Assembly (NCBI RefSeq): GCF_026016325.1
Contig: NZ_CP087203.1
Span: 4,092,001 to 4,156,000, forward strand
Direction: 5' to 3'
DNA from: Pseudomonas sp. B21-056
GTDB taxonomy: Bacteria > Pseudomonadota > Gammaproteobacteria > Pseudomonadales > Pseudomonadaceae
DNA: 64,000 nt
Below are positions 47,095 through 63,853 of the stretch, in pieces; position 1 is the first letter of the stretch, and each line of letters starts with the position of its first letter. The notes beneath the pieces were generated by a model. The model worked only from the letters and a program-made list of their open reading frames with translations. It ran no database searches and was not told where the DNA came from. Position numbers and translations under genes: made by a program.

Positions 47095-47096
47095 AA

Positions 47097-47789: not shown

Positions 47790-47790
47790 G

Positions 47791-48417: not shown

Positions 48418-48889
48418 TGGTCTTTTCCTCCAGAAGTTGGCGGAGCTGCTGTGCAGCGCGCCCGCAAGTTTCATCAGCGCCCAAACCACTGGACTGCACG
48501 ACCACGCGCTCTGTGCCGCCGGCTTTGTCGTAAACGGTGACGGCCCAGTCGCTGACCCGGTTGTAGCCAATCTCCAGCCATAGGAACGGCATTACCGCGT
48601 GGGCCTGGTCGAAGGCGTCCAAGAGTTCGGCCTGACGTACAACGCGTTCGCCGGTACGAATGTCCAAAGCAATCAATGCCCGGCGAAGATGCCGACCGGC
48701 ATCGTAAAAACGGCTTTCAGCTATGGCGGCGCTGGCCGCCGACAGATGCTCGGCCGGCACGGATGGGCGATGCACATGCTCGAGCACCGTTGAAACGTGC
48801 TTCATTGCGTCTGCCCAGGACATGGTTGGCAGCTCCGCCCATACCGCGTCTTGCAAGGCCTCAATTGATGCATTCAGTGACAGGCTCAT
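48407..48889 (-). CDS. Hypothetical phage early protein
   Basis: 160 residues, mostly helical, no membrane segment. LSAASAAIAESRFYDAGRHLRRALIALD is a notable helix pair. Overlaps DUF3164 by 11 bp and the next upstream gene by four. Not recognised. Confidence 0.7.
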   Translation of the reverse strand: MSLSLNASIEALQDAVWAELPTMSWADAMKHVSTVLEHVHRPSVPAEHLSAASAAIAESRFYDAGRHLRRALIALDIRTGERVVRQAELLDAFDQAHAVMPFLWLEIGYNRVSDWAVTVYDKAGGTERVVVQSSGLGADETCGRAAQQLRQLLEEKTNDQ

Positions 48890-49203
48890 TTGTCCTGCTC
48901 CTTGACCAGGGTGAACCAGACAACGCCTACGCCCCGAATCGAAGCTGTGTTGCGCGCAAGTCGCCCCTCGACGTTGCAGCGCATCCCGCGAAGTTCATGC
49001 CCAAAGCGCCGCGCCAGAAGTTCGAGGCTATCGGGGGAAACAAAAATCTTGTTATCCGCGAGTACCAACGCCTTGATCACGATCCCGGCCTCACGCATGT
49101 CGCGGGTCAGATCGTTGAAGGTGGCCAGCTTCTTCGGAAAATCTTCGGTGAGGATGCTCAGCGGCCGTGCCAGGGCTGGCGGTACCAGATGTAGGGCGGC
49201 CAT
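48886..49203 (-). CDS. Hypothetical phage early protein
   Basis: 105 residues, small mixed alpha/beta. DLTRDMREAGIVIKALVLADNKIFVSPDS suggests a compact fold. Starts one base after the ATPase B stop and overlaps the following gene by four bases, so part of the early operon. Not recognised. Confidence 0.68.
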   Translation of the reverse strand: MAALHLVPPALARPLSILTEDFPKKLATFNDLTRDMREAGIVIKALVLADNKIFVSPDSLELLARRFGHELRGMRCNVEGRLARNTASIRGVGVVWFTLVKEQDK

Positions 49204-49204
49204 T

Positions 49205-50389: not shown

Positions 50390-52161
50390 TCACCTCCAAC
50401 CGCTGCCAGCACCAGGCTGAACGGTTTGCGCATGACCTCAACGGGCCGTTTCAGCTCAGCCTCGACGGCATCGAGCTGCTCTTCGGGAACTCCTTCCGGG
50501 TAACGCTGCAGCAGCCAACCGAACGTTTGCGCCGTCCAGAGGTTGCCCAGGCGCGGGCGCAGCAGCTTCGCGGCTTCAACATGACTGAGCGGGGCAACCT
50601 CGACGGTTGGGGCGTTGACGTTAAGGCTGGTGCCGCGCCGTGGCATGTAGGCCGGCAGCACGGTGTCGGTAACGTGTTTGTGCGGATCAATCAGGCCGCC
50701 GAACGGAACCGCCTTGGCCTTGCGGGCCGCCTCGGCGTCCGCCTGATTTGCGGTGCCGGTTGCGATTTGCTCCAACACCTTGCGCGACAGTTGGGCCGGC
50801 GTTTCGGCGTGATGCTTGTACGTTTCGCCGATGGTGGCGGAGGTCTCGGCGAAGCCGAATTCATCCACCCCAATACGCTCGATGACGTGGTAATTTTCGC
50901 GGCCGTCTTCCCCAACAAGGACGGCAATGGCCGTGTCCTTGTCGCGCCAGCAGTTGCGAGTGATCAGCAGCTTTTCGCCGACCATTACGCTTGGCACCGA
51001 GCTGACATCGAACTGAGCCCCCCGGAACGAAACCCGCAGCAGATTGCTGACCTTGCGGTATTCCGGCGTGCTGACCGCCAACTCGCGGCAAACCTCGACG
51101 CCGGGCGCTAGCCGCAATTGTTCCTGCCGGATCATCTGCCAGACGCCGTAGCGTGTGCGCCGGGTGCGGGTATGAATGGAGGTGGCGTTGAAATAACGCA
51201 TCCACTTGCCGGCCCACGCGTTGATCTGCTCCAGGCTCTCAGCGGCCTGAAACTTGAGGGCGCTTTCAAATTCGCGCTCGACGATGTTGTGCGCCTGCTC
51301 AACTTGGCCCTTTGCCCGCGCATTGCCGACCTGGTTGATGATCAGGTCAATGGACATGGCACGGCACAGGTTGCGGAAAATACCGCTGGTCATGGCCGCC
51401 CCGGGGTCAGTCATCAGCACCCACGGCACGCCGTGGAACGGATCTGATTCGCCGCGCTTTTGCATGGCGTTGATCAAAACGTTGCACAGGTTCTCGGCCG
51501 ACTCGGCGCCCAGGACATATTCCACGTACAGGGTGCCGCTGGTATGGTCGGTGATCACGTACCGCCACAGGCGCTGGCGCTCAATCTTTTTGAGATTGCC
51601 GGGCTTACCGTCGTAGAACTCGGCCTTGTTCATCGCCCGCGCCCCGTCATCGGCCAGGTAGAACTGAGTCGAGATTGACGCGTCCACCTGCCAAACGTGG
51701 TTGGGGTGCTTGCTGGCCAGCGAGACCGCCGGGGCATCGTGTAGCAGTTGTTCGGGGTGCAACTTGTAAGCCCGTAAAGCCCGGTTGATTGCGCCGCCGG
51801 TCAACGGGCGGAACAGCCCCGTTTGTTCGTCCACCCGGCCGGCCACGATCAAGTTGTTGCTGCGCAGACGTTCAACTGCCCGCTCGATGGTAGACAGCTG
51901 CTTATTGTTGGCGCGGATCGATTCGAGCAGCACGGCAGATATCATCCGCGCCTCTTCAATGGGCAGCGCGCTGCAGCCGGCATCACTACGACGTTTGCGG
52001 GGCTTCGTCACGCGGATCTCCTTCAGCTTGCGCTGCAGGGTTTGAAGGGACACACCCAGCTCGGCCGCACCCGCCTGGTAAACGGCGGTACGCTGGCCGT
52101 GTGGGGCGTTCTCGGCGCGTTGGGCGATTTGGGCCAACTGCTGGATCTGTACCGGGTTCAT
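50386..52161 (-). CDS. Mu-like DDE transposase A
   Basis: 591 residues. N-terminal HTH (GVSLQTLQRKLKEIR), rve-type core with Asp160 (HVWQVDASI), Asp252 (LMTDPGAAMT) and Glu289 (GQVEQAHNIVERE), a DDE triad with 36-residue last spacing, and a C-terminal beta-barrel/MuA-C-like domain. Responsible for replicative transposition and prophage integration. Full length, intact. Confidence 0.94.
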   Translation of the reverse strand: MNPVQIQQLAQIAQRAENAPHGQRTAVYQAGAAELGVSLQTLQRKLKEIRVTKPRKRRSDAGCSALPIEEARMISAVLLESIRANNKQLSTIERAVERLRSNNLIVAGRVDEQTGLFRPLTGGAINRALRAYKLHPEQLLHDAPAVSLASKHPNHVWQVDASISTQFYLADDGARAMNKAEFYDGKPGNLKKIERQRLWRYVITDHTSGTLYVEYVLGAESAENLCNVLINAMQKRGESDPFHGVPWVLMTDPGAAMTSGIFRNLCRAMSIDLIINQVGNARAKGQVEQAHNIVEREFESALKFQAAESLEQINAWAGKWMRYFNATSIHTRTRRTRYGVWQMIRQEQLRLAPGVEVCRELAVSTPEYRKVSNLLRVSFRGAQFDVSSVPSVMVGEKLLITRNCWRDKDTAIAVLVGEDGRENYHVIERIGVDEFGFAETSATIGETYKHHAETPAQLSRKVLEQIATGTANQADAEAARKAKAVPFGGLIDPHKHVTDTVLPAYMPRRGTSLNVNAPTVEVAPLSHVEAAKLLRPRLGNLWTAQTFGWLLQRYPEGVPEEQLDAVEAELKRPVEVMRKPFSLVLAAVGGE

Positions 52162-52164
52162 GGG

Positions 52165-53097
52165 TTAAGCCTCGGCCGCCGTCATCCACACAGGGGCGCC
52201 GCCCTCGGCGTGTTCGGGGAGGTTAAATTCGCTACGGATGGTGGCCAGCGTGATTTCCAGCTGCCGGATCAAATCGGCCTTGTAGGCCCGGTGATCAACG
52301 CCGTTTGCGGCGCCGTGTTCGGCCATTAGGGAAAAGCCTTCGCGCAGCTCTCCCAAGATCTTCGCCTCAACCTCAAACTGAACGCCGACAAGTTCAGCAC
52401 GCAGGTCCTTGATAACCTCGTCCGGCGTGGCGGATTGGATGCGTTTGCGGTGTTTCGAAAGTTCCTGTTTTGTGCTGTCCAGCTCTTTGGTCTTCTTCGC
52501 CATAACCTCGCTTTGCGCTTCATAGTCGGCGTTGGTTTCGTCCAGCCGCTGGGTCAGTTCTTCTTTTTCCTTGGCGTGTTTGGCGATGATCTCCTCGGCC
52601 AAATCGACAAACGCCTCTTTGTCGCCAGTCTTGGCGATTTCGATCAGGGCTGTTTTTTGATCTTCCGGCAGGCGCCGGTATTGGCGCAGTTCGCGGTAGC
52701 CGATGCCCATGCGGCTCATGGATTCGAGCGCCTCTTCGCCGAGCGTGCGCAAGTTGGCGATATCCTCATCCACCTGCTGGCGAGAGCGGCCAAGTAGCGA
52801 ACAAAATTCGTCCCAGGTGCCGGTAAACTGCTGACCGTCAGCACTTACTTTCCCGCTCAAGCCCCGGTAAAGCTTGGTTTCCTTGACGTAAGCAAGTTTT
52901 GAAGTGCTGACCGTCAGCGAAAATTTCGCAAAAGATTCGGCCATCTGAGCCTGGCCGAGCAGTTGATTGACCAGATCACGTTCATCGCTGTGCGAGGCCA
53001 GGATTGACGTCATCGCGTTCTGGTTCGCGGTCAAGGTTTCACCGTCCAGAACGGGCAACTCAGCGGCGTCTACGGGTTGGTTTTTGGTGCGAGCCAT
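52165..53097 (-). CDS. Phage early protein with central coiled coil
   Basis: 310 residues. Lys/Gln/Glu-rich region at about 190-245 (AKEKEELTQRLDETNADYEA and KELDSTKQELSKHRKR) forms a long coiled coil; the N-terminal half contains GTWDEFCSLLGRSRQQVDEDI, helix-turn-helix-like. Homologues precede transposase A in related Mu-like Pseudomonas phages as I recall. Role unknown, perhaps DNA binding or partition-like. Confidence 0.72.
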   Translation of the reverse strand: MARTKNQPVDAAELPVLDGETLTANQNAMTSILASHSDERDLVNQLLGQAQMAESFAKFSLTVSTSKLAYVKETKLYRGLSGKVSADGQQFTGTWDEFCSLLGRSRQQVDEDIANLRTLGEEALESMSRMGIGYRELRQYRRLPEDQKTALIEIAKTGDKEAFVDLAEEIIAKHAKEKEELTQRLDETNADYEAQSEVMAKKTKELDSTKQELSKHRKRIQSATPDEVIKDLRAELVGVQFEVEAKILGELREGFSLMAEHGAANGVDHRAYKADLIRQLEITLATIRSEFNLPEHAEGGAPVWMTAAEA

Positions 53098-53107
53098 GGG
53101 GTTCTCC

Positions 53108-53410
53108 TTAGTTCATCGAGCCAGCGGCAATGCGCTGATTGATTTCCTGCATGCGGTTGGTCAGACGGGCCATATGCTCGGCGTGGGCCTGGGCGATTTG
53201 CAGCACGCCCACTGAATGAGCGAACCGACCGTTATCGAGCTTCACCGCAAGCCCTTCCTCAATGAGGGTCTGCATGGCGCGGGTGATATTGCTCGGGCTG
53301 TCCTGCGTGAGATGGGCCAGCTCGGTGTTGCTGAGGCCAGTCACGGTGTGGCCCTTCAAAGCCTTGAGCACACGCAACACACGTGCTGCGGCTGAGACGG
53401 TGCGGCTCAT
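53108..53410 (-). CDS. Small winged-helix DNA-binding protein (IclR-type HTH)
   Basis: 100 residues. VLRVLKALKGHTVTGLSNTEL and LTQDSPSNITRAMQTLIEEGL form an IclR/MarR-like winged helix, then a helical tail. Overlaps the upstream gene stop by four bases (ATGA). Likely an early regulator; target unknown. Confidence 0.72.
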   Translation of the reverse strand: MSRTVSAAARVLRVLKALKGHTVTGLSNTELAHLTQDSPSNITRAMQTLIEEGLAVKLDNGRFAHSVGVLQIAQAHAEHMARLTNRMQEINQRIAAGSMN

Positions 53411-53886
53411 GGCTGCCCCTCCAGTTCAAGTTGTGGGTGTTGGGTTTGGCTGACGTTGCCCCGGTGCCAAGCGAGCGCTTCCATTGCGGCTTGTATTGCC
53501 GCCAAGGTTTCCTCGGTGTCGCTGTTCTTTGTGTAGAACGCCAACAACTTTCCGGCGGCGGTAGTGAGCAGCTCTTGAAGCGCCTGCATATCCTGGGCAT
53601 CGCAGTTGCGGCCGGTTGGGATATCAATGGTCAGCCGGCCGGCGCTGGCGGCGATCCACCGGGTGACGTAATCACAGCCACAAGCCCGTTCGTAAGGGCG
53701 GATCAAATTGGCCGGCATGCGGCCAGTTTGTAGCCATTTGTAAACTGACCAGTGATCAGCCACGCCCATCTCATCCGCGATTCGCTCCACGCTTTTGTTG
53801 TGGGTTTCCCGCGCAAAGTCCTTGCACAGCTCTAGCGCGTGGCGCAATGAGGTTGGCTGGAGGGTCTTCCAGCGGCGGCGGCTCAT
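53407..53886 (-). CDS. Phage early protein with HTH-like N-terminus
   Basis: 159 residues. LRHALELCKDFARETHNKSV then ERIADEMGVADHWSVYKWLQTGRMP suggests a helix-turn-helix of phage CII/Cro style. ATG at 53886; a longer in-frame start is non-conserved. First of the contiguous early genes before the gap at 53887-54241. Function unknown. Confidence 0.68.
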   Translation of the reverse strand: MSRRRWKTLQPTSLRHALELCKDFARETHNKSVERIADEMGVADHWSVYKWLQTGRMPANLIRPYERACGCDYVTRWIAASAGRLTIDIPTGRNCDAQDMQALQELLTTAAGKLLAFYTKNSDTEETLAAIQAAMEALAWHRGNVSQTQHPQLELEGQP

Positions 53887-53998
53887 TGGAAAGCCCCCGC
53901 TAGAGCGTTTTCCAAACAAACCGCGCCTTTGCACATAGGCAAAAGGATTACTCCAGGCGCAATCTTTTCGGGTACATTCCCCAACATGGACATGAGAA

Positions 53999-54238
53999 AT
54001 GACCAACCGCATCGAGAAGCTTGAAGCTCAAGTGAACGCCCTGGCGCAGGGCTGGTTACGCCTTGCCGCAGCGTTGGAAGTTGCCGGGGTTGTAGCGCCA
54101 GAGTGCATTGAGCAGGCACTGCGGCCTGTGCGCTGGCCTGGGCAGTCGATAGACGCTGAAGCGGCAAGAACGCTGGTATGGCTATGTGACCAGTTGGCTG
54201 ACGCGAGAAGCGCCCGTTTAACTTCATCAGCAAGGTAG
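53999..54238 (+). CDS. Small helical protein, opposite strand inside early region
   Basis: 79 residues, amphipathic helices (IEKLEAQVNALAQGWLRLAAAL). Sits on the plus strand in the gap between two leftward early genes and ends 4 bp from the Ner-like stop. A TTTGC/GCAAA inverted repeat lies upstream at 53928-53943. Ribosome site weak. Probably real but unproven. Confidence 0.5.
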   Translation: MTNRIEKLEAQVNALAQGWLRLAAALEVAGVVAPECIEQALRPVRWPGQSIDAEAARTLVWLCDQLADARSARLTSSAR

Positions 54239-54241
54239 CCA

Positions 54242-54454
54242 TTACGCTGCCAACGCTGCGGAAGGTTTGAGACCGAGCTTCACCGCAATGTCATGGGCCT
54301 TGCCATAGTTGGCTTTGGCTTGGCCGTTGAGGACGCGATAGACCTCATTGCGGGTGTAACCGTTTTCGATAGCCCATTGGGTGATGGTTTTGCCTACCCG
54401 GCGAAAGTTTTCTTTCACCTGGTCGGCGGTTAGGGCTTTGGCATGGGTGGCCAT
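54242..54454 (-). CDS. Ner-like/Cro-like DNA-binding protein
   Basis: 70 residues. The helix-turn-helix KTITQWAIENGYTRNEVYRVLNG resembles Ner/Nlp-type phage regulators. First leftward gene after the operator region, divergent from the repressor; expected to turn down early transcription as Ner does in Mu. AGGAG with eight-base spacing precedes the ATG. Confidence 0.82.
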   Translation of the reverse strand: MATHAKALTADQVKENFRRVGKTITQWAIENGYTRNEVYRVLNGQAKANYGKAHDIAVKLGLKPSAALAA

Positions 54455-54505
54455 GGTGGTGGCTCCTGTGATGCAAAGATAATGGCTGGATGTGCGAATG
54501 ATTAT

Positions 54506-54521
54506 GTGATCTATACATCAC
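54506..54521. promoter_or_regulatory. Operator O1 (GTGATCTATACATCAC)
   Basis: Inverted repeat with arms ATGTGAT/ATCACAT in the extended form 54504-54523, between the divergent Ner-like and repressor genes. Confidence 0.65.
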
Positions 54522-54538
54522 ATCGTCAAGGATATTTT

Positions 54539-54554
54539 GTGACTGATACATCAC
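54539..54554. promoter_or_regulatory. Operator O2 overlapping the repressor start codon
   Basis: GTGACTGATACATCAC, 13 of 16 bases matching O1, 33 bp away (about three helical turns). Its first GTG is the start codon of the repressor. Confidence 0.6.
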
Positions 54555-55060
54555 CTTTTTTGCGACTCAAAGAAGAGCGGAAACGCCTCAAGCTCACCCA
54601 AGCGGCGGCGAGCGCCGTCGCGGGGGTCAGCCGGGAAACCTGGAGTCGATACGAAGGGGGCACGGTGTCGCCGGGAATGGAAGTGCTGGTAGCTTTTGCG
54701 TCAGCCGGCGCAGACGTTCAGTACGTTCTAACGGGGTTGCACGGTTCCGCGTCGCCGACGATGAGGGAGCGGTTGTTCCTCGATCAGTTCAGGCGCAGCA
54801 CTGAGGCGCAGCAGGACGCAGCCTTACGTGTCCTCTTGAATGAAGAACGCGTTCAGGCTGAAAAATCGCAGTTGGCGGCAGATGAACAAATGCTGCTTGA
54901 TGGATACCGCGCATTAGACGCGGCCAGCAAAAAAAGAATGCTTGCCAGCATGATCTTGGGCGAGCCAGGCGACGCCGTGGGGGCACAGGCGTCAACTAAC
55001 ACCACAGTGACTGGCTCAGGTAACCGCGTAGCGGGTAGGGATTTTCATACGAAGGAATGA
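54539..55060 (+). CDS. Phage repressor (XRE family) with C-terminal VAGRD-type tag
   Basis: 173 residues from a GTG at 54539 preceded by AAGGA. N-terminal XRE helix-turn-helix (FLRLKEERKRLKLTQAAASA, then VAGVSRETWSRYEGG), a middle helical region, and a C-terminal low-complexity TNTTVTGSGNRVAGRDF. No LexA-type peptidase motif is visible, so it is not a self-cleaving CI; the tail may mediate assembly. Divergent from the leftward early operon. Confidence 0.8.
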   Translation: MTDTSPFLRLKEERKRLKLTQAAASAVAGVSRETWSRYEGGTVSPGMEVLVAFASAGADVQYVLTGLHGSASPTMRERLFLDQFRRSTEAQQDAALRVLLNEERVQAEKSQLAADEQMLLDGYRALDAASKKRMLASMILGEPGDAVGAQASTNTTVTGSGNRVAGRDFHTKE

Positions 55061-55069
55061 GGTGGGGAG

Positions 55070-55489
55070 ATGCACGTTGAAGGGCAAAACAACAGAGTTG
55101 CGATGAGGGATTATTACGAAAAGCCGAGCCTAAACCTAACGCCTGAACAGCTTAAAGAGCTATCGGTTAAACCATGTGGAAGCTGTGAGACACGACTGGT
55201 CGCAGGGAGCGCCAGTATTTGTAGACACTGCCGGGAAGCGTTGAGAGAACGCGCGTGGAAGGATCGTATGGGCCGATATTTCTTCGCGCTCTTGTGTACT
55301 TGGGGAATGCTGATTCAAATTCAGGAAAAAACGACCGTGATTGATGCCTTCCGTTTTTTCGAATTGGGTGCATGTGCCGGCGCGATAGTTTTTTTCGGCG
55401 CTATCCTCTGGGCGGGATTCAAGGACTGGTGGCTGTTTCACGGTGACGAGCTTGGCGATGCGATTAAAAAGCGACTCGGGGGGCAATAG
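55070..55489 (+). CDS. Two-TM zinc-ribbon protein with N-terminal VAxRD tag
   Basis: 139 residues. N-terminal VEGQNNRVAMRDYYEKP repeats the NRVAxRD tag of the repressor tail. Next, a zinc ribbon (CGSCETR ... CRHCRE, two CxxC), then two membrane helices (about 67-84 and 97-117) and a charged tail. Begins 10 bp after the repressor stop, lower GC than surrounding phage genes. Not recognised; a membrane-acting accessory (exclusion) protein is inferred. Confidence 0.7.
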   Translation: MHVEGQNNRVAMRDYYEKPSLNLTPEQLKELSVKPCGSCETRLVAGSASICRHCREALRERAWKDRMGRYFFALLCTWGMLIQIQEKTTVIDAFRFFELGACAGAIVFFGAILWAGFKDWWLFHGDELGDAIKKRLGGQ

Positions 55490-55496
55490 GCATCTT

Positions 55497-56042
55497 ATGA
55501 AGCACTATTTGAAGTGCATTGGAATCGGATTATTGACCCAGTCAATGTCCGCATTCGTATTCGCCGCAGCCCCCGGCCAGAAGGGCTCGGAAGCATTTGA
55601 AAGCGCCTCCCGTTATTTGAGCGAATTGGATAAGGCAATGGCAAATGCCGTCGCCGTACTACAAGGCGGAGACCTTGCCGTAGTAAACGCACAAAGCAAA
55701 AGGTTCACGGCGTTAGCCACCGAGGGCAAAAATCAGTTTGGGGGCTCAGTTTTCGAACCCCTGGGTAGCTGTGGGGCCGCGGGCGTATTCGCGCAAAGCT
55801 GGTGGACATCCCAGCTCGCCGCTGCCACCAAAGGCGGCAAAGAGTCGAGCCCCGGCGCCATCAAAGGAGCCCTCGAAAGCTATCAATCGAGTCGAGCGCA
55901 GTGCCTAACAGATGCTCAACCTGCAAGTGCACAGGACGCAAAAGGCGGTGACGGCAATTGTCTAACCACCTACGCCCTTGACCCGAAGACGCAAGAGCTG
56001 GTCGAGGTTCCCTTGCCGAAGGACTGTAAGACAAAAATTTGA
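55497..56042 (+). CDS. Secreted accessory protein with conserved Cys
   Basis: 181 residues with a signal peptide (about 1-26, MKHYLKCIGIGLLTQSM then SAFVFAAA). The mature region is helical and contains four Cys in two clusters (SCGAAGVF; AQCLTD; NCLTTY; PKDC). ATG at 55497 is 8 bp after the previous stop. Periplasmic location expected. Not recognised. Probably co-transcribed with the neighbours. Confidence 0.68.
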   Translation: MKHYLKCIGIGLLTQSMSAFVFAAAPGQKGSEAFESASRYLSELDKAMANAVAVLQGGDLAVVNAQSKRFTALATEGKNQFGGSVFEPLGSCGAAGVFAQSWWTSQLAAATKGGKESSPGAIKGALESYQSSRAQCLTDAQPASAQDAKGGDGNCLTTYALDPKTQELVEVPLPKDCKTKI

Positions 56043-56176
56043 GCCACGGACAGGGCCGGGTTATCAATGCCACCGATAACGGGGACCGGATTCTGGCCGG
56101 ACTGTTTCAAAATAAAAGGGGCCGAAAAGTGCTCCTGACAACTGCCAAAAACACAACACATAGCAAGGAGTCAAAA

Positions 56177-56380
56177 ATGAGAAGGGATAGAGATGATCAC
56201 AGCAGAGACCGTGGCCGCCGAGACGACAGCGACGGTCTCAACAACAATCGGGACAAAGGGGAAGGCAGTCGCGATGGCTTCGAAAACTACAGAGACCGGG
56301 GGTTTCCTGAAGTGGTAGATACTCTCTCACCCCCACCACGGCCCGACAGAGGAAATGGTGATGGGAGAGACAACGGCTGA
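56177..56380 (+). CDS. Arg/Asp-rich disordered 67-residue peptide
   Basis: 67 residues, strongly charged (MRRDRDDHSRDRGRRDDSD and similar), no hydrophobic segment, so predicted disordered. AAGGAG before the ATG is a near-perfect ribosome site. Its end overlaps the start of the SLATT-like gene by about 20-26 bases in another frame, indicating translational coupling. Role unknown; an inhibitor or scaffold of its partner is one guess. Confidence 0.65.
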   Translation: MRRDRDDHSRDRGRRDDSDGLNNNRDKGEGSRDGFENYRDRGFPEVVDTLSPPPRPDRGNGDGRDNG

Positions 56381-56906
56381 TCTTTCGGATCGCTGGTGGG
56401 CCACCCTGTTTAGTGTGCGCCGCTCAATCCGGTATCACCAACGCCGTCGAGCCTTCTATGACAGGCTGGATCAATTTTCCAACATGCTGTCTTTGATTTT
56501 CGGATCCGCTGCGATTTACGGCGTACTTGAGGATAACGCGAAGAATGTGGCCTTGGTGGCATCTGCCACGGTGACCGTTGTCTCATCCATTAACCTAGTT
56601 GTTGGAAGTGCTCAACGCGGACGCGCTCACGCGGACTTCATGCGCCGGTACGTTGATTTAGAAAAACGCATGCTTGGGAATGAGTCGGAAGAGCGATTAC
56701 TTGAGGTCGCAGAGGCCCGACTGAGCATTGAGGCCGAAGAGCCCCCCGTGATGCATGTTTTAAACATCATCTGTCACAACGAAACAATGCGTGCAATGGG
56801 ATTCAAAAAGGAAGAATTACCAAAGATCGGCTGGTTCCAATCGTTTGTTTCCCAAGTCTTTGATTTTCGCGAAAGCAGTATCCACAACCCCGAGCGTAAA
56901 GAGTGA
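56361..56906 (+). CDS. SLATT-like two-transmembrane protein
   Basis: 181 residues. N-terminal WWATLFSVRRSIRYHQRRRAF, then two adjacent membrane helices (about 38-56 and 62-82), a short RGRAHADFMRRYVDLEKRML segment and helical tail. This layout matches SLATT domains (SMODS/SLOG-associating two-TM effectors) as I know them. SLATT proteins are predicted pore-formers in nucleotide-signalling conflict systems, but no SMODS or SLOG gene is adjacent. Alternative start ATG at 56355. Confidence 0.65.
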   Translation: MGETTADLSDRWWATLFSVRRSIRYHQRRRAFYDRLDQFSNMLSLIFGSAAIYGVLEDNAKNVALVASATVTVVSSINLVVGSAQRGRAHADFMRRYVDLEKRMLGNESEERLLEVAEARLSIEAEEPPVMHVLNIICHNETMRAMGFKKEELPKIGWFQSFVSQVFDFRESSIHNPERKE

Positions 56907-56946
56907 CCGGATGGAATCTCTTTAAACCCGATTAAAAGCCCCCCTG

Positions 56947-56976
56947 ACACACGCCGCCCATCATGGCGGCGTGTGT
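56947..56976 (+). promoter_or_regulatory. 12-bp hairpin before the lysis/late genes
   Basis: ACACACGCCGCC pairs perfectly with GGCGGCGTGTGT around a six-base loop, without a proper T tract (ATTTCTGG follows). It separates the accessory cassette from the endolysin. May be a weak terminator or late-promoter element. Confidence 0.5.
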
Positions 56977-57021
56977 ATTTCTGGCGCCCGAAACTGGCGG
57001 CGCCGTTACAGGAGGCGCCCC

Positions 57022-57519
57022 ATGCGACCCGAAACCCCTCGCGGCATCCGCAACTTCAACCCCGGCAATATCCGCCACGCTAAAGGCGTCCGTTGGCAGG
57101 GCATGACCGTCGCCCAGTCCGACGCCAACTTCGTCCAGTTCAACGGCCCGCGTTGGGGAATCCGCGCCATCGCCCGCGTGCTGATCACCTACCAGGACAA
57201 ACGCCGGGCCGCTGACGGCAGCCGTATCGACAGCGTTCGCGAGATCATTGAGCGCTGGGCCCCGGCAACCGAAAACAACACCGACGCATACGCCGCCGCC
57301 GTAGCCAGCGTCCTGGCGGTCGATCCTGGCTTCGAAGGTTTGGACGTCTACCAGTACGACACCATGCGCGCCCTGGTGCTTGCCATCATCCGCCATGAAA
57401 ACGGCCCCGGCCCTTTGCCAGGCGGCCAATGGTACGGCGACGCAATCGTTGCCGACGGATTGGCACTGGCGGGGGTTGAACGTGGCATCGTGCACGGCAA
57501 GGGCGAGGTGCCGGCATGA
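57022..57519 (+). CDS. Phage endolysin/lysozyme-like (structural protein P5-like)
   Basis: 165 residues. GIRNFNPGNIRHAKGVRWQGM at the start and the catalytic-like EIIERWAPATENNTDAYAAAV match the lysozyme-like P5 family used by BcepMu-type phages. AGGAGG precedes the ATG at 57022. No signal peptide, so it relies on the holin for access to peptidoglycan. First gene of the lysis cluster; overlaps the holin gene by four bases. Confidence 0.82.
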   Translation: MRPETPRGIRNFNPGNIRHAKGVRWQGMTVAQSDANFVQFNGPRWGIRAIARVLITYQDKRRAADGSRIDSVREIIERWAPATENNTDAYAAAVASVLAVDPGFEGLDVYQYDTMRALVLAIIRHENGPGPLPGGQWYGDAIVADGLALAGVERGIVHGKGEVPA

Positions 57520-57734
57520 AGCTGATCTGCGATTGGCGTTGCTGCTACAAGCTTTACAGCGTCCAACTCGGCGTGCTGATTGCGCTCCTTGGCTTCGCCC
57601 AACTTGAAATCCTGCCCTTGTGGCAGGCGCAGCTTTCGGACAGGGCTTACGCCGCCTGCAACAGCGCGTTGGGGCTGATCCTGTTCGTTGCCCGGCTGAT
57701 CAGGCAAGGCCCCCCTCAAGAGGTTCAGCCATGA
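57516..57734 (+). CDS. Holin candidate
   Basis: 72 residues with two hydrophobic segments (LYSVQLGVLIALLGFAQL at about 13-30 and NSALGLILFVARLI at about 49-62) and a charged C-terminus. ATG overlaps the endolysin stop (ATGA). Position between endolysin and Rz genes supports holin; not identified by family. Confidence 0.72.
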   Translation: MKLICDWRCCYKLYSVQLGVLIALLGFAQLEILPLWQAQLSDRAYAACNSALGLILFVARLIRQGPPQEVQP

Positions 57735-57943
57735 AACTGAACCTGTTTGGCCGAACCTTTGCCGCCTTCCTCGCAGGCCTGTTGGGAGCCTACCGCTGGA
57801 CCGTTCCCATCGCGGCAGCCGGCAGCTGGATTAACCCCACAGTCATCCCGCCGTACCGTCACGGCAAGACCGGCATCGCGGCGGCAAAACGCCGGGCGCG
57901 CAAATCCCGCAACCGTATGAGGCAACACCATGGCCGCGCTTGA
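57731..57943 (+). CDS. Small basic membrane-associated phage protein
   Basis: 70 residues: one hydrophobic stretch (FAAFLAGLLGAYRW) and a Lys/Arg-rich tail (AAKRRARKSRNRMRQHH). Overlaps the holin stop (ATGA) and the Rz start (14 bp). Function unknown, perhaps a second holin or antiholin. Confidence 0.65.
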   Translation: MKLNLFGRTFAAFLAGLLGAYRWTVPIAAAGSWINPTVIPPYRHGKTGIAAAKRRARKSRNRMRQHHGRA

Positions 57944-58544
57944 CCGATTGCCATGGCCGCTACCGTCGGGGCTGACCGTTGCCCTGTTGGCCTGCGTGGT
58001 CAGCGCGGCGGCCGCCGGCTCCATCGCCTATGGGTTTGGCTATCGGTACGCCGCCGCACTGGGCGATACCGCGCTGGCCAATCTTCAGAGCACACATTCG
58101 GCCCAAGCCCTGGCCGCAGAACAAGCCAACCGGGTGCTGCTTCTGCAACAGGTCTCCCGCGCCCAACAAAGCGAGTCGTTGTTGTTCGATTTCATGACTC
58201 AGCACGCCAACGAGAAACAACAACTGCAGGAGCGTATCCCCCATGTCACGACCCAATACCGGCCGGCGCCCGGCGCGGCGGCTCAGCCTATTCCTCGTTG
58301 CGTGTTCACTGCTGGTTGGCTGCGCGACTTCAACGCCGCCCTCGGCGTGCCCGCCCCAAGACCGGGCGCCGTTGCCGCCGCTGTTGAAGAAGCGGCCCGG
58401 CCCGCCGCCGGCACTGACGCCGAACTATTGGAAAGCGGCGTCACTCCGGCCGACATCTTGGCCCACGCCCAGGACTACGGCCTGTGGGCCCGAACCAATT
58501 TCGCGCAACTCAACGCCTTGCTCGACCTCCAGGAAAAGGACTGA
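57930..58544 (+). CDS. Rz-like i-spanin
   Basis: 204 residues. One N-terminal membrane helix (LTVALLACVVSAAAAGSIAY) then a periplasmic helical region (ALAAEQANRVLLLQQVSRAQ). This is the shape of an inner-membrane spanin. An Rz1-like lipoprotein gene lies inside it in another frame (58243-58560). Disrupts the outer membrane at lysis. Confidence 0.82.
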   Translation: MAALDRLPWPLPSGLTVALLACVVSAAAAGSIAYGFGYRYAAALGDTALANLQSTHSAQALAAEQANRVLLLQQVSRAQQSESLLFDFMTQHANEKQQLQERIPHVTTQYRPAPGAAAQPIPRCVFTAGWLRDFNAALGVPAPRPGAVAAAVEEAARPAAGTDAELLESGVTPADILAHAQDYGLWARTNFAQLNALLDLQEKD

Positions 58545-58560
58545 CGCCCTATGGATGTAG
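58243..58560 (+). CDS. Rz1-like o-spanin lipoprotein embedded in Rz
   Basis: 105 residues in a different frame inside Rz. Signal anchor and lipobox LVGC with lipidated Cys27, then Pro-rich mature part (TPPSACPPQDRAPLPPLLKK). Nested Rz1 genes with Pro-rich lipoproteins are a standard spanin arrangement. It runs 16 bases past the Rz stop. Confidence 0.78.
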   Translation: MSRPNTGRRPARRLSLFLVACSLLVGCATSTPPSACPPQDRAPLPPLLKKRPGPPPALTPNYWKAASLRPTSWPTPRTTACGPEPISRNSTPCSTSRKRTDALWM

Positions 58561-58769
58561 CTGAGCACGCTACAGATGACGACATCAGCGCTTCGGAGTT
58601 GCGCGTCCGCAACAGCGCCCTGCGACGAGGCTCCGGCCGGTCGGTTTATCGCTGCGAAGAGTGCGGCGATGCGATCCCTGAAGACCGCCGCCAGGCCGAG
58701 CCCGGCACCGAACATTGTCTTGATTGCATAGACGCCTTGGAACACTTGGCAACGCGGGGTTTTGAATGA
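58551..58769 (+). CDS. TraR/DksA C4-type zinc-finger protein
   Basis: 72 residues. Four Cys (Cys35, Cys38, Cys56, Cys59) in CEECGD...CLDC, the TraR/DksA C-terminal zinc finger, preceded by a short acidic N-terminus. Members bind RNA polymerase or are structural; function in phages is unclear. Overlaps Rz1 and the next gene. Confidence 0.85.
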   Translation: MDVAEHATDDDISASELRVRNSALRRGSGRSVYRCEECGDAIPEDRRQAEPGTEHCLDCIDALEHLATRGFE

Positions 58770-59071
58770 ACTTGAACGAGCTGAACTTCGGCTTCCAAAC
58801 CGTTCAGTGGCTGATGCTCACAGTGCTCAGCATTTACACCTGGATGACCAAGCGACAAGCCGCCAGCGCTCAGGAACTCCTGGAACTGCGCACCCGTATC
58901 GTCGCCCTGGAAGAACACGTGCGCCACCTGCCTGACCAGACCGCCGTCACGGATCTGCTCGGCGACATGAAGGCGGTACGCGCTGAACTCTCTGGGGTTA
59001 AGGAGGCCCTCGGCCCTTTAGCCCGTTCGCTGGACCGGATCAATGATTACCTGCTGCGAGAAAAAACATGA
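58766..59071 (+). CDS. DUF2730 family protein
   Basis: 101 residues: an N-terminal membrane helix (about 11-27) and a coiled-coil region (LLELRTRIVALEEHVRHL). DUF2730 is found between lysis and terminase genes of Mu-like phages. Overlaps both neighbours by four bases. Function unknown. Confidence 0.8.
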   Translation: MNLNELNFGFQTVQWLMLTVLSIYTWMTKRQAASAQELLELRTRIVALEEHVRHLPDQTAVTDLLGDMKAVRAELSGVKEALGPLARSLDRINDYLLREKT

Positions 59072-59361
59072 CCGAATACGCCGACTTTTTGCGCCAGGAT
59101 TACCGCCTGGTGATCCTGCGCCTGCTCGTCGAGATGACCGGCTACCGCGCCAATAGCTCCGTACTGACCATGGCGCTGGACAACTACGGGCACACCCTCA
59201 GCCGTGACCAGGTGAAAACCGAGCTGCACTGGCTGGCAGAGCAAGGCGCGTTGACCCTGGCCGATGTTGGCCCGGTGCTGGTGGCAACGCTCACCGAGCG
59301 CGGCCAGGACATTGCGGCCGGGCGCGCCCGCGTCCCCGGCATCAAACGGCCGGGGGCATAA
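59068..59361 (+). CDS. VpaChn25_0724-family phage protein (winged-helix-like)
   Basis: 97 residues. RLVILRLLVEMTGYRANSSVL then DNYGHTLSRDQVKTELHWLA looks like a winged helix, as in this Mu-like family. It could bind DNA near the packaging machinery. Four-base overlap upstream; 2-bp gap to the small terminase. Confidence 0.78.
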   Translation: MTEYADFLRQDYRLVILRLLVEMTGYRANSSVLTMALDNYGHTLSRDQVKTELHWLAEQGALTLADVGPVLVATLTERGQDIAAGRARVPGIKRPGA

Positions 59362-59363
59362 CC

Positions 59364-59915
59364 ATGGCGGGCAAGTCATCCATCAACCGTCTGCCGCCGA
59401 TGGTCAAGGCGTACATCCAGAAGCTGTTGCGTGAAGACCGCATGACCCTGGATGACATGTTGGCCGATATCCAGACGCGCTTCCCCAACGAGAAAGCCCC
59501 GAGCCGCAGCGCGTTGGGCCGCTTCAAGTTGGGCTTCGATGAACTCACCGACAAGGCCCGCCAACAACGCGAAATGGCCGAGGCCTTTGTAGGGGCCTTC
59601 GGCGAAGACTCTTCGGACAAGACCGGCGCGCTGCTGGTGGAAGCGATCTCGACGCTTACCTATCAGGCCGCCATGGGCGCCCATGAGAAAGACGAGGTCA
59701 CCATTGCCGAAGTGTCCGCGTTGGCGCGCGCCGCCAAGGCCACCATGGAGGCACGGACGATGAGCGTGAAAGAGCGCCAAACCATCGAGAAAGCGGCCCG
59801 CGAACGACTGCTACGCGAGCAGGCCGCCGAGTTGGATAACGCCGTGAAGGCCAAAGGCATGACCGAAGACCAGGCCCTGTTCTGGCGCCAGAAATTCCTG
59901 GGCGTGAAGCAATGA
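59364..59915 (+). CDS. Small terminase subunit (DUF3486)
   Basis: 183 residues, all-helical. SSINRLPPMVKAYIQKLLRE then MTLDDMLADIQTRFP is the DUF3486 signature, equivalent to Mu gp27. Recognises phage DNA for headful packaging. Overlaps TerL by four bases. Confidence 0.88.
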   Translation: MAGKSSINRLPPMVKAYIQKLLREDRMTLDDMLADIQTRFPNEKAPSRSALGRFKLGFDELTDKARQQREMAEAFVGAFGEDSSDKTGALLVEAISTLTYQAAMGAHEKDEVTIAEVSALARAAKATMEARTMSVKERQTIEKAARERLLREQAAELDNAVKAKGMTEDQALFWRQKFLGVKQ

Positions 59916-61519
59916 AACCCTCATCCAGTACGCTGCGCGTCGTAGAGTGGGAGGAGCTGCCGCCGAGCGTCCGGGAGATTCCGGCGGGTTACAACCCGCT
60001 GGACGAAGGGATCTTGATGGCCCATCAATCGGAATGGTTGGGCATCGACGCGCAGATCAAGCTGTGTGAGAAAGGCCGGCGCACCGGCATCACCTTCGCC
60101 GAGGCATTGGACTCGGTCATCACCGCCGCCTCGCAAAAAGTCGCGGGCGGCATGGACTGCTTCTACATCGGCGACACCAAGGAAAAAGGCCTGGAGTTCA
60201 TCGGCTACTGCGCCAAATTCAGCCGCGTGATGGCCGAGGCTCAGGCATCCGGCGTCAGTGAAATCGAAGAGTTTTTGTTCGATGACCAGGACGAGGCCGG
60301 CAACACCCGGCAAATCAACGCCTACCGCATCCGCTACGCCTCGAGGTTCAAAATCGTCGCGCTGTCCAGCAACCCGGCCGGCGTGCGCGGTTTGCAGGGC
60401 AAAGTGATCATCGACGAGGCGGCGTTTCACCGTGACGTTTCGGCCGTGCTCGATGCCGCTACGGCGCTGCTGATTTGGGGCGGACGCATCGTCATCATCA
60501 GCACCCACAACGGCAAATCCAACCCGTTCAACCAGATGGTCAGCGACATCCGCGACAAGCGTTACGGCGACAGCGCCCAGGTCTACCGGGCCACCTTCGA
60601 CGACGCCGTCGCCAACGGCCTGTTTGAGCGGGTCTGCTTCATGGCCGACAAGCAAGCCACGGCCGAAGACAAAGAGGCCTGGTACAAGAAGATCCGCAAC
60701 GCCTACGGCCCGCGCAAGGCGCAAATGCGCGAAGAGCTGGACGCTATCCCCCGCGACGGCAACGGCGTCTGCATCCCCGGCGTGTGGATCGATGAAGCCA
60801 TGCGCCCCGGCCGTACAGTGCTGCGCCTGGCGCTGGATGATGACTTCACCCTGGAGCCGGTCTACCGCCGCGAAGCCTATGTCGATGACTGGATCGGGCG
60901 CTACCTAACGCCCCTGATGCAACAGGCATTGGCGCCCGACCTGCGGCATTTCTTGGGCATGGACTACGCCCGGCACCGGGACTTTTCCATCATCTGCCCG
61001 ATGTCGGTCGATCAGGTTCGCCACCGTGACATTCCATTTGTCATCGAGATGCACAAGGTCCCGACCCGGCAACAAAAGCAGGTGCTGTTTTACATCCTGC
61101 GCGGCCTGCCGCGTTTTGTCGGCGCCGCATTGGACGCCACCGGCAGCGGCGAAACGCTCGCCGAAGAAACGGCGGACGAGTTCGGCCGCAACCGCATTCA
61201 ACAGGTAAAGATCAGCCGCGCCTGGTACGGCGCCTGGATGCCGAAGTTTGTGCAATTGTTCGAAGATTCGACCATCACTCTTCCGCTCGATGATTCGCTG
61301 CACCAGGACGTGCGGGCTATCGAAATGGTGGACGGCATTCCGATGATTGTTAAAGCCCGTTCCCAAGACCTCAAAGACCCGGACCTCTACCGCCACGGCG
61401 ACTTCGCCGGGGCCGGCGCGTTGGCGAACTTTGCGACGTTGGAGGTTTCCGCCGGCCCGGTCTCCGTCAAATCACGCCGCCCGCGCCAGGGCAAACGCAT
61501 CACCCAGGGGTACGCATGA
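59912..61519 (+). CDS. Large terminase subunit (TerL, Mu gp28-like)
   Basis: 535 residues. ATPase part with CEKGRRTGITFAEAL (Walker A-like) and VIIDEAAFHRDV (Walker B); nuclease part with FLGMDYARHRDFSIICPM (Asp) and ALDATGSGETLAEETADEFG. Cuts and packages the transposed phage DNA. Overlaps the portal gene by four bases. Confidence 0.93.
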   Translation: MKPSSSTLRVVEWEELPPSVREIPAGYNPLDEGILMAHQSEWLGIDAQIKLCEKGRRTGITFAEALDSVITAASQKVAGGMDCFYIGDTKEKGLEFIGYCAKFSRVMAEAQASGVSEIEEFLFDDQDEAGNTRQINAYRIRYASRFKIVALSSNPAGVRGLQGKVIIDEAAFHRDVSAVLDAATALLIWGGRIVIISTHNGKSNPFNQMVSDIRDKRYGDSAQVYRATFDDAVANGLFERVCFMADKQATAEDKEAWYKKIRNAYGPRKAQMREELDAIPRDGNGVCIPGVWIDEAMRPGRTVLRLALDDDFTLEPVYRREAYVDDWIGRYLTPLMQQALAPDLRHFLGMDYARHRDFSIICPMSVDQVRHRDIPFVIEMHKVPTRQQKQVLFYILRGLPRFVGAALDATGSGETLAEETADEFGRNRIQQVKISRAWYGAWMPKFVQLFEDSTITLPLDDSLHQDVRAIEMVDGIPMIVKARSQDLKDPDLYRHGDFAGAGALANFATLEVSAGPVSVKSRRPRQGKRITQGYA

Positions 61520-63012
61520 ACAAGAGAGGCCTGTGGGTCAGCCCCACCGAATTCGTCAGCTTTGCCGAGGCCAAGCGCAGCACAACACTCAACCAACACA
61601 TTGCCACCCGCAGCCGCTCAGACGCGGGCGGCTTCAGCGGGGCCAACCTGCCGAATCCCGACCCCATCCTCAAGGCGCAGGGCAAAGACATCACGGTTTA
61701 CCGCGACCTGCGCAGCTCGGCGTTGGTCGGCGGCAACGTTCGCCGCCGTAAGGCCTCGGTGCTTTCCCTGGAGCGCGGCATCAAACGCGGCGACGCGCCG
61801 CCCAAAGTCGAGCGTTTCATTCGCGATTGGCTCACCGACCTGGACCTGGACCGCATTATCCGCGAATTGCTCGATGCGCCATTGTTCGGTTACCAGCCCG
61901 TCGAGCTGATGTGGCAGCCGCTGGGCATGCACCTGGTGCCGCAAGACCTGCTCGGCAAGCCCGCCGAATGGTTCTTCTACGACAAGGACAACGCGCTGCG
62001 CTTTCGCTCGAAAGAAGCTGGCCAGGACGGCGAACTGTACGACCCGCAACGCTTTATCGTTGCCCGGCAAGACGCGACCTACGCCAACCCCTACGGCTTC
62101 CCGGACCTCAGCATGTGCTTTTGGCCGGCGACCTTCATGAAAGGCGGCCTGAAGTTTTGGGTGCAGTTCACCGAGAAGTACGGCAGCCCGTGGGTCATCG
62201 GCAAACACCCACGCGGCGCCAACGACGGCGAAACCGATTTGCTGCTCGATAGCCTGGAGGCCATGGTGCAGGACGCCGTTGCGGCCATCCCGGACGATTC
62301 CAGCGTGCAGATTATCGAGGCGGCGGGCAAAGCCGGCAGCGCCGAGGTCTACCGTGAACTGCTGGAGTACTGCCGCAGCGAAATCAACGTGGCCATGCTC
62401 GGGCAAAACCAGACCACCGAGAAGGACAGCAACCGCGCCAGCGCCACAGCCGGCGCCGAGGTCACCAAAGATATCCGCGACGGCGACGCCGGCATCGTTG
62501 CCGCCGCGTTGAACGCCTGCATTCGCCTGGTCGTGGACCTCAACTTCGGCGCCGACGTCGCCGCGCCGCTGTATGAGTTGTGGGAACAGGAGGAAATCGA
62601 CAAGACCCTGGCCCAGCGCGACAAGGCATTGACCGAGTCCGGCGTGAAGTTCACCGACGCGTACTGGAAGCGCACCTACAACCTGCAGGACGGTGATCTC
62701 GCAACGGCGCCGACCGCCGCTGACTCGCCGGACTTCGCCGAGGCAACCGTGCGGCCGCTGCTGGACCAGATCGCCCTCGATCAGGCCATCAATGGCCTGC
62801 CCGCCGAAGTGCTGCAACAACAGGCCGAACAGGCCGCGGCCCCGTTCATTGAAGCGCTGCAGCGCGCCCGCGATGGCTCAGAGGCCCTCGGCCTGTTAGC
62901 CGAGGCGTTCCCGCAAATGGATGACCAAGCGCTCCAGGAGCAGCTCGCCAATCTGTTGTTCATCGCCGATACCTGGGGCCGCCTGAGCGCCCGCGCCGAC
63001 CGGGAGGACTGA
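61516..63012 (+). CDS. Portal protein (DUF935, Mu gp29-like)
   Basis: 498 residues. NPDPILKAQGKDITVYRDLR, then a central YGSPWVIGKHPRGANDGETD, then GQNQTTEKDSNRASATAGAE are typical of the Mu-type portal family. Forms the dodecameric channel at one vertex. Full length. Confidence 0.92.
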   Translation: MNKRGLWVSPTEFVSFAEAKRSTTLNQHIATRSRSDAGGFSGANLPNPDPILKAQGKDITVYRDLRSSALVGGNVRRRKASVLSLERGIKRGDAPPKVERFIRDWLTDLDLDRIIRELLDAPLFGYQPVELMWQPLGMHLVPQDLLGKPAEWFFYDKDNALRFRSKEAGQDGELYDPQRFIVARQDATYANPYGFPDLSMCFWPATFMKGGLKFWVQFTEKYGSPWVIGKHPRGANDGETDLLLDSLEAMVQDAVAAIPDDSSVQIIEAAGKAGSAEVYRELLEYCRSEINVAMLGQNQTTEKDSNRASATAGAEVTKDIRDGDAGIVAAALNACIRLVVDLNFGADVAAPLYELWEQEEIDKTLAQRDKALTESGVKFTDAYWKRTYNLQDGDLATAPTAADSPDFAEATVRPLLDQIALDQAINGLPAEVLQQQAEQAAAPFIEALQRARDGSEALGLLAEAFPQMDDQALQEQLANLLFIADTWGRLSARADRED

Positions 63013-63013
63013 C

Positions 63014-63844: not shown

Positions 63845-63853
63845 GAGCACAAC

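What the first reader, a model, noticed from the sequence alone, without database searches (positions are those of the whole stretch)
55070..56906. Candidate novel exclusion/defence cassette in the Mu-like prophage
Four genes between repressor and lysis: zinc-ribbon 2TM protein with tag, secreted Cys protein, Arg/Asp-rich peptide, SLATT-like 2TM protein. Base composition is visibly more AT-rich than the flanking phage genes, and position is that of moron genes expressed by the lysogen. SLATT domains are predicted membrane effectors; here no nucleotide-signal enzyme is present, so triggering would be by another route. A membrane sensor/effector set with a peptide regulator is plausible and undescribed to me.
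Basis: partly seen in the sequence, partly recalled or inferred. Interest (0 to 1): 0.78.

Follow-up and report, generated by a model that had tools for sequence, protein, structure and literature searches.

The report
Prophage repressor tagged to membrane protein
In many dormant bacterial viruses the repressor protein ends in a short tag that is matched by a tag at the start of the neighbouring, usually membrane, protein, and the two tags switch type together between viruses, which suggests that the dormancy switch is physically wired to the cell membrane.

Summary
They are not one four-gene cassette. Gene 1 (zinc-ribbon 2TM protein) belongs with the repressor just upstream: the repressor ends VTGSGNRVAGRDFHTK and gene 1 begins VEGQNNRVAMRDYYEK. 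In 81 repressor/next-gene pairs, 54 of 56 tagged repressors have a next protein with the same tag class at its N-terminus (three classes), and 25 of 25 untagged repressors have an untagged neighbour. DNA-binding domains and partner bodies are exchanged, yet the tags still match (17 of 17 doubly tagged combinations; 0 of 20,000 permutations). Codon use shows that the match is kept at protein level. Phage B3 and an E. coli P2-like phage carry such pairs. In 14 of 30 class-B loci one or two more proteins bear the same tag. Gene 2 (exported) is exchangeable cargo; genes 3 and 4 (peptide plus SLATT-fold protein) recur as a two-gene unit. Best reading: matched tags tie the repressor to lysogen-expressed membrane partners, as amyloid-signalling motifs tie sensors to effectors elsewhere. 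Tag binding, amyloid formation and any defence or induction phenotype are untested.

The parts
54539..55060 (+). Prophage repressor (Xre-type HTH, 173 aa from GTG), with a C-terminal tag and no recognised peptidase domain
   Evidence: Pfam HTH_31 E 9.4e-10, HTH_3 E 2.7e-7; PHROG 8 transcriptional regulator E 2.7e-11
55007..55054 (+). Repressor C-terminal tag VTGSGNRVAGRDFHTK
   Evidence: read; aligned to the partner's tag
55070..55489 (+). Tagged zinc-ribbon 2TM partner (139 aa), 9 nt after the repressor stop
   Evidence: model pLDDT 72.8, tag residues under 50
55076..55123 (+). Partner N-terminal tag VEGQNNRVAMRDYYEK, matched to the repressor tag
   Evidence: 8 of the 13 invariant columns among 17 aligned sequences lie in the tag; tail versus head score against shuffled head z 10.3
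55175..55231 (+). CxxC...CxxC zinc-ribbon-like segment (C36, C39, C51, C54)
   Evidence: all four Cys invariant in 17 aligned sequences; Pfam DZR_2 only E 0.063
55497..56042 (+). Exported Cys protein (181 aa), exchangeable cargo
   Evidence: PHROG 23218 E 2e-36; family in 11 of 398 genomes of the genus; found after tagged and untagged repressors
56177..56380 (+). Arg/Asp-rich peptide (67 aa) with a VVDTLSPPPRP segment shared with peptides at other SLATT loci
   Evidence: 12 of 18 SLATT loci have a peptide with the V-x-D-[TS] plus proline end just upstream
56355..56906 (+). SLATT-fold 2TM protein (183 aa)
   Evidence: PHROG 11791 E 6.8e-68; model pLDDT 85.3; best viral-library matches are SLATT proteins, prob 1.00
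54242..54454 (-). Ner-like HTH protein, divergent from the repressor
   Evidence: PHROG 925 E 8.6e-30
57016..57519 (+). Endolysin homologue, downstream border of the slot
   Evidence: PHROG 873 E 1.2e-56; anchor

Best explanation
The repressor and gene 1 form a tag-coupled pair. Shown: a 15-20-residue tag at the repressor's C-terminus is matched by a tag at the N-terminus of the next protein, usually a membrane protein, and the two tags change class together while the DNA-binding domain and the partner body are exchanged. Inferred: the tags bind each other (matched-tag co-assembly, perhaps a beta-arch stack of the kind proposed for amyloid signalling motifs), so that in the lysogen, where both probably come from one transcript, the repressor is held in a complex with membrane proteins. 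Inferred, less sure: the membrane proteins are output devices (exclusion or abortive effectors, in the way of lambda Rex) kept quiet or triggered through the repressor's tag. Several unrelated bodies share the tag, and up to three tagged proteins sit behind one repressor, which is the architecture of one sensor with several effectors. The tag can lie on the same chain as a domain that is a separate lipoprotein elsewhere (class C), so the chain may cross the membrane. In the window, gene 2 is exported cargo, and genes 3 and 4 are a separate peptide plus SLATT unit, probably an independent membrane effector with its regulator. The confidence given is for tag coupling; I put exclusion/effector output at about 0.4 and feedback on the repressor at about 0.3.
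For: Class concordance in 79 of 81 pairs: A-A 20, B-B 28, C-C 6, none-none 25. Class-free test: 18 clusters, summed own-pair score 516; 0 of 20,000 permutations reached it, the best being 511. Collapsed to 33 distinct HTH/body/tag combinations: 31 concordant (best permutation 21), 17 of 17 doubly tagged ones, 0 of 20,000 permutations. The window's HTH is 90% identical to that of L031, which has a class-B tail and a class-B partner. One partner body (61.7% identity over 167 residues, L017 against L099) carries class A or B as its repressor does. Identical tag residues share codons no more than codon usage predicts: 185 of 504 against 175.7, so the match is at protein level. 14 of 30 class-B loci and 0 of 51 others have further class-B tagged proteins downstream. 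B3 and E. coli phage 520873 carry pairs. In class C (6 of 6) the partner is fused to a domain that is a separate protein in 11 of 30 class-B loci (E 3e-23). In Fc02 the repressor and the ORF just downstream are transcribed in the lysogen (PMC9936078).
Against: No binding data. The tag is unstructured in the single-chain model. Two of 56 tagged repressors lack a class-matched neighbour: L002 (Komp_PAO1_1) has no tagged neighbour, and L204's match is weak (p 0.028). L200 is called concordant by class, but the 40-residue score missed it (p 0.43). L094, left out of the 81 by the gap filter, has a class-B tail but no adjacent partner in my ORF call. Class rules were written after seeing the sequences and contain strings fitted to single loci (L191, L200). 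The loci are related, 69 of 81 come from one viral collection, and one anchor was itself a class-B partner. The class-free permutation margin is narrow because the class-A clusters resemble each other. Some partners seem to lack a TM segment (my reading of L108 and KS10). I know of no exclusion phenotype for a tagged partner.
Confidence: 0.62

Rival explanations
1. The tags bind each other, but the purpose is control of the repressor: the membrane partner stabilises, sequesters or releases the repressor and so sets prophage induction, as 434 Hex protects its repressor or as membrane sequestration silences Mlc (the latter recalled).
For: Partner directly downstream of the repressor: gap between -4 and 17 nt in 53 of 56 tagged loci. 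Family-1 partners have faint ORF6C/GemA resemblance (E 0.07-0.16), domains of phage regulators. 434 Hex, co-transcribed with cI, prevents RecA-stimulated repressor cleavage and is lethal when overexpressed (PMC3564112, abstract and passages).
Against: Does not explain why one repressor can have up to three tagged proteins or why partner bodies are unrelated.
Confidence: 0.3
2. Both tags are read by a third factor (host protease adaptor, chaperone or another phage protein) and do not bind each other.
For: Short terminal tags can be degrons or localisation signals; Mu repressor turnover through its C-terminus by ClpXP is recalled, not from a call.
Against: Class matching in one slot of related phages needs a different reader for each class; the tag is N-terminal in one protein and C-terminal in the other.
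Confidence: 0.15
3. One reading: a four-gene membrane sensor/effector defence cassette, in which the tag is incidental.
For: AT-rich slot, SLATT fold, recurrent peptide plus SLATT unit, lysogen-transcribed slot in Fc02.
Against: Homologues of gene 1 occur with other downstream cargo (L004, L005); gene 2 and genes 3-4 occur without gene 1; the tag is the best conserved part of gene 1 apart from the cysteines.
Confidence: 0.1
4. The similarity is a DNA or RNA repeat (operator, tandem duplication) that happens to be translated at both places.
For: In the window the two copies start 69 bp apart.
Against: Codon sharing at chance level (185 of 504 against 175.7 expected); tags stay matched across classes.
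Confidence: 0.02

Closest known systems
Bacterial amyloid signalling sequences (BASS1-10) linking NLR proteins and Bell effectors
   Same: A short motif shared between adjacent genes, at the end of one product and the start of the other; many sequence classes; effectors thought to act on membranes (PMC7889193 and PMC8086366, passages). Class A here ends in GRD; ARD is reported at the C-terminus of BASS2 (PMC9815663, passage).
   Different: The supposed sensor is a phage repressor, not an NLR; the tag is C-terminal in the repressor and N-terminal in the membrane protein, the reverse of NLR/Bell. No homology to BASS tested; no amyloid shown.
Lambda cI-rexA-rexB and CarolAnn gp43/gp44 exclusion operons
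   Same: Repressor co-transcribed with a membrane protein in the lysogen (PMC6426606 and PMC7542560, passages).
   Different: No RexA/DUF4747 hit among the window proteins; no four-TM RexB; that Rex proteins share no tag with cI is recalled.
Phage 434 Hex
   Same: Gene directly behind the repressor on one lysogen transcript; acts on its own repressor class (PMC3564112, abstract and passages).
   Different: No tag reported in the passages read; Hex acts on RecA-stimulated repressor cleavage, and no peptidase domain was found in the window's repressor.
SLATT 2TM effectors
   Same: Gene 4 has the fold: best matches in the viral structure library are SLATT proteins; UniRef names several homologues SMODS and SLOG-associating 2TM effector.
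   Different: Below Pfam cut-offs; partnered with a small polar peptide rather than a nucleotide-signal enzyme.

Membership tests
BASS / amyloid signalling pair | Short motif shared by adjacent genes | tested here: met
   54 of 56 tagged repressors have a neighbour with the same tag class; permutation tests
BASS / amyloid signalling pair | One partner is an NLR (NB-ARC/NACHT) | tested here: not met
   The window's repressor has HTH matches and no NB-ARC/NACHT hit
BASS / amyloid signalling pair | Motif at the NLR N-terminus and the Bell C-terminus | tested here: not met
   C-terminal in the repressor, N-terminal in the membrane protein
BASS / amyloid signalling pair | Beta-arch amyloid or prion behaviour | not testable with these tools
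   Single-chain model leaves the tag disordered, pLDDT under 50
BASS / amyloid signalling pair | Sequence match to BASS1-10 profiles | not tested
   Profiles not held; only the remark on ARD in BASS2
Lambda Rex-type exclusion | Co-transcription with the repressor in the lysogen | tested here: inconclusive
   9-nt gap and no terminator-like site found between the genes; RNA-seq only for Fc02, from a paper
Lambda Rex-type exclusion | RexA (DUF4747) and four-TM RexB | tested here: not met
   No such Pfam hit; two long helices in gene 1
Lambda Rex-type exclusion | Exclusion phenotype | not testable with these tools
   Needs phage challenge
SLATT | 2TM helical SLATT fold | tested here: met
   Model pLDDT 85.3; top two viral-library matches named SLATT, prob 1.00, E 3.2e-3 and 3.8e-3, TMq 0.56 and 0.63; no match at E 1e-3 or better there or in the PDB
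SLATT | Pfam SLATT profile match | tested here: not met
   No family for gene 4; SLATT_6 in 1 of 31 aligned homologues, E 0.02
SLATT | Partnered nucleotide-signal enzyme | tested here: not met
   None among the slot proteins by Pfam or PADLOC
B3-like Mu-like phage (Beetrevirus-type) immunity region | Divergent Ner-like gene and repressor, followed by lysis genes | tested here: met
   PHROG matches; same order in B3

The most novel reading that the evidence does not exclude
A new signalling principle in temperate phages: prophage repressors use amyloid-signalling-type terminal tags to recruit matched membrane effectors, so that the lysis-lysogeny switch and a membrane response are one assembly. 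It would be an NLR-independent use of such motifs, found in Mu-like and P2-like phages of Pseudomonas and E. coli, with tag class as the specificity code.
Probability: 0.35. Interest if true: 0.92.

Novelty: new variant of a known kind. Interest (0 to 1): 0.74.

Why it matters
Phage repressors are treated as DNA-binding switches sensed through RecA, ClpXP or antirepressors (recalled). A matched tag shared with co-encoded membrane proteins would give them a direct wire to the envelope, explain part of the morons in the repressor operon, and supply natural, exchangeable interaction tags. A review of amyloid signalling asks whether such motifs act in bacterial pathways that do not depend on NLRs (PMC7889193, passages); these pairs make that testable in a laboratory phage, B3.

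Tried and rejected
Single four-gene cassette: rejected because gene 1, gene 2 and genes 3-4 each occur without the others. DNA repeat or duplication: weakened by codon comparison. RHIM-like cargo protein (NNVQIG; L018, L070, L077, L019) as a component: not tag-matched, since L019's repressor is untagged; Pfam RHIM E 0.06, below cut-off. A DNA pattern for the class-A tag over 398 genomes was too loose: 40 hits in 37 genomes, against 10 hits of the reversed control pattern. Among the 30 loci it returned, only L260 and L268 bear the tag on a repressor tail (L268 also on the neighbouring partner); three other proteins bear it mid-chain. ZnR-2TM homologues in genome contigs: none confirmed. Fold searches: no match at E 1e-3 for gene 4 in the PDB or the viral library, nor for gene 1 in the viral library. 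Ten partner-type proteins: no clear Pfam family; ORF6C/GemA only at E 0.07-0.16, one DUF7544 hit at E 5e-4 below its cut-off. First automatic tag classes mislabelled 5 class-B heads as A; the order of rules was corrected. A first count of extra tagged proteins that demanded a Shine-Dalgarno-like site gave 6 class-B loci; without that demand 14. Promoter/terminator scan: nothing above chance.

Rows dropped: of 91 repressor candidates, one had no downstream ORF; of the other 90, 9 were left out because the first ORF lay more than 130 nt away or was under 90 aa: L003, L069, L094, L121, L199, L212, L216, L218, L231. Eight of these have untagged tails; L094 has a class-B tail without an adjacent partner and speaks against a strict pair. 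The phage records fetched are not among the 81.

Full report
Observation. The finding's coordinates hold. Four ORFs lie at 55070-55489, 55497-56042, 56177-56380 and 56355-56906, in an AT-rich stretch: 52.8% GC against 60.3% for the window; 1 of 172 equal windows in 45000-64000 is as low. Around them are a divergent Ner-like gene, an Xre-type repressor and an endolysin homologue, the order of phage B3. The window lies in a 6.45-Mb single-contig genome; its name is not given, but named homologues and the phage matches point to Pseudomonas.

What gene 1 is. Gene 1 has few relatives: five proteins in the large protein collection, one of them a 96% near-copy, two viral contigs at first search, none in the annotated phages by tblastn, and 1 of 57 related genomes, which is its own. 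In both viral contigs it again follows a repressor, but with a different DNA-binding domain and different genes behind it. The constant element is a tag: the window repressor ends VTGSGNRVAGRDFHTK and gene 1 begins VEGQNNRVAMRDYYEK. Among 17 aligned sequences (window included, some near-identical), 8 of the 13 invariant columns lie in that tag and 4 are the zinc-ribbon cysteines. They were collected with the whole protein, so the tag helped to find them.

Survey. I collected B3-like immunity regions by three anchors in viral contigs: endolysin (80 loci kept of 108), a 196-aa class-B partner (30) and the Ner-like protein (80 kept of 248). To these came genomes of the window's genus and two phage records. 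Ninety-one repressor candidates with distinct ends were found, 90 of them with a downstream ORF; 81 had an ORF of at least 90 aa within 130 nt: 69 from viral contigs, 11 from genomes, 1 from a phage record. The partner anchor favours class-B loci but does not select on the repressor tail.

Matched tags. Three tag classes occur: A (GNRVAGRD-type), B (VGQ...GD/GN-type) and C (GNVIKGNV-type). Tail class and head class agree in 79 of 81 pairs: 20 A, 28 B, 6 C and 25 untagged on both sides. The exceptions are Komp_PAO1_1 (L002), whose tagged repressor has no tagged neighbour, and L204, a weak match. The class rules were written after seeing the sequences. A test without classes, by Smith-Waterman scores over 18 sequence clusters, gave a summed own-pair score of 516; none of 20,000 permutations reached it, the best being 511. 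That margin is narrow because class-A clusters resemble each other. In that test 6 of 9 clusters with a tagged repressor have an own-pair score above all 500 shuffles, L204 reaches p 0.028, and L002 and L200 show nothing; none of the 9 untagged clusters does. The L108 pair has an idiosyncratic shared tag (NVHAPGGNAAGRDL and KVNAPKGNAAGRDI).

Exchange of parts. Four HTH clusters occur with more than one tail class, and two partner-body families with more than one head class. The window's HTH is 90% identical to that of L031, which has a class-B tail and a class-B 194-aa partner. One partner body carries class A, B or C heads, with A and B bodies up to about 60% identical (E 2.8e-72). Another body is class B in L105 and L107, class A in L195 and untagged in L230, each time as its repressor is. 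Collapsed to 33 distinct combinations, 31 agree (best permutation 21), and all 17 that are tagged on both sides agree; 0 of 20,000 permutations reached either value.

Protein level, not DNA level. At 504 identical residues in matched tags the same codon is used 185 times, against 175.7 expected from codon usage.

One repressor, several tagged proteins. In 14 of 30 class-B loci one or two more proteins with class-B N-terminal tags follow (127-132 aa or 137 aa; hydropathy marks two segments in most of those listed); none of the other 51 loci has a further tagged protein. In class C, all 6 partners carry C-terminally a domain that in 11 of 30 class-B loci is a separate protein behind the partner, with a lipobox in the example read (E 3e-23, 35% identity). 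A homologue also follows one untagged repressor (L211). This suggests that class-C partners reach from the tag to the periplasm. The gene next after the partner looks exported in 28 of 30 class-B loci, 12 of 20 class A, 1 of 6 class C and 12 of 25 untagged (crude rule; that rule missed the window's own gene 2, which I read as exported from its ATG at 55497).

Named phages. B3: repressor B3ORF18 ends SVTGDGNRTAGRDFHERKE, and B3ORF20, which begins 5 nt past the repressor's end, starts VNIEVTGSNNIVAGRDFIEN. The P2-like Escherichia phage 520873: repressor ends LNISGGNNRIAGRDYNETKGR, and the next reading frame begins MAVNSNGSNNRVAGRDFHEK; that gene does not read through in one frame in this record. 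Similar DNA lies in 521 of 5,426 E. coli genomes, 509 of them with at least 80% of the query. Burkholderia KS10 has a possible further variant by eye (not scored). Fc02, JBD67 and Ps60 have untagged repressors. In Fc02 the repressor and the accessory ORF behind it are transcribed in the lysogen (PMC9936078, section 3.2 read), so the slot is one that lysogens express; for the window this is inferred.

Genes 2-4. Gene 2 belongs to PHROG 23218, found in 11 of 398 genomes of the genus and behind tagged and untagged repressors alike. Gene 4's family is in 9 of 398, some of these only weakly. Gene 4 has a SLATT-like fold: model pLDDT 85.3, top viral-library matches named SLATT at prob 1.00 though E only 3e-3, several homologues so named by UniRef; Pfam profiles do not reach cut-off and no solved structure matches at E 1e-3. 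A small polar peptide with a V-x-D-[TS] plus proline-rich end lies just upstream of the SLATT start, overlapping it by about 17-26 nt, in 12 of 18 loci. By the script's looser rule it is 14 of 18, adding L030 (proline-rich end only) and L121 (a longer protein with a similar end); 4 of 18 have none, and 2 further loci lay too near a contig end to count.

Mechanism and rivals. The strongest inference is that the tags bind each other within a class. The closest functional parallel is amyloid signalling, where adjacent genes share a terminal motif; sensor type and orientation differ, and no amyloid has been shown, so I do not file it as a BASS member. For the output I prefer membrane effectors under repressor control, by analogy with lambda Rex and CarolAnn, over control of the repressor by the partner, by analogy with 434 Hex; the present data separate the two only weakly.

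Literature. No held paper combined 'amyloid signaling motif', prophage, repressor and bacteria (listing); further searches on repressor tails, membrane partners and B3ORF18/B3ORF20 listed nothing on such pairs. Only open-licence PubMed Central papers are held, so absence there is weak evidence. Papers were seen as passages, except PMC9936078 (abstract and sections 3.2, 3.3) and PMC8086366 (passages and the background section).

Noticed in passing
window 56177-56906; L029, L031, L063, L072, L075, L078, L087, L088, L090, L094, L107: Small polar, often Arg/Asp-rich peptide with a V-x-D-[TS] plus proline end, overlapping the start of a SLATT-fold gene by about 17-26 nt; recurrent two-gene unit (12 of 18 loci).
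   Followed up: partly
L035 6709-7215; also L018, L070, L077, L019: 168-171-aa cargo protein with a RHIM-like core (NFHGANNVQIGDNNIQN); Pfam RHIM E 0.06, below cut-off.
   Followed up: partly
L192, L202, L205, L221, L224, L225: Tagged partner fused to a C-terminal domain that is a separate protein, with a lipobox in the example read, in 11 of 30 class-B loci.
   Followed up: yes
L249 4453-5500 (Escherichia phage 520873): P2-like phage with a tagged repressor and a partner gene that does not read through in one frame; similar DNA in 521 of 5,426 E. coli genomes.
   Followed up: partly
L019, L024, L079, L086, L090 and others: Untagged repressors ending ..RILKLVVNR are followed by another recurrent protein family (SARLSEEIENLPRDGK), mostly 160-180 aa, with CxxC pairs in the two members read in full; a possible tag-free version of the same coupling.
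   Followed up: no
G000:C1:4381964-4382377: Second PHROG 23218 homologue in the same genome, outside the window.
   Followed up: no
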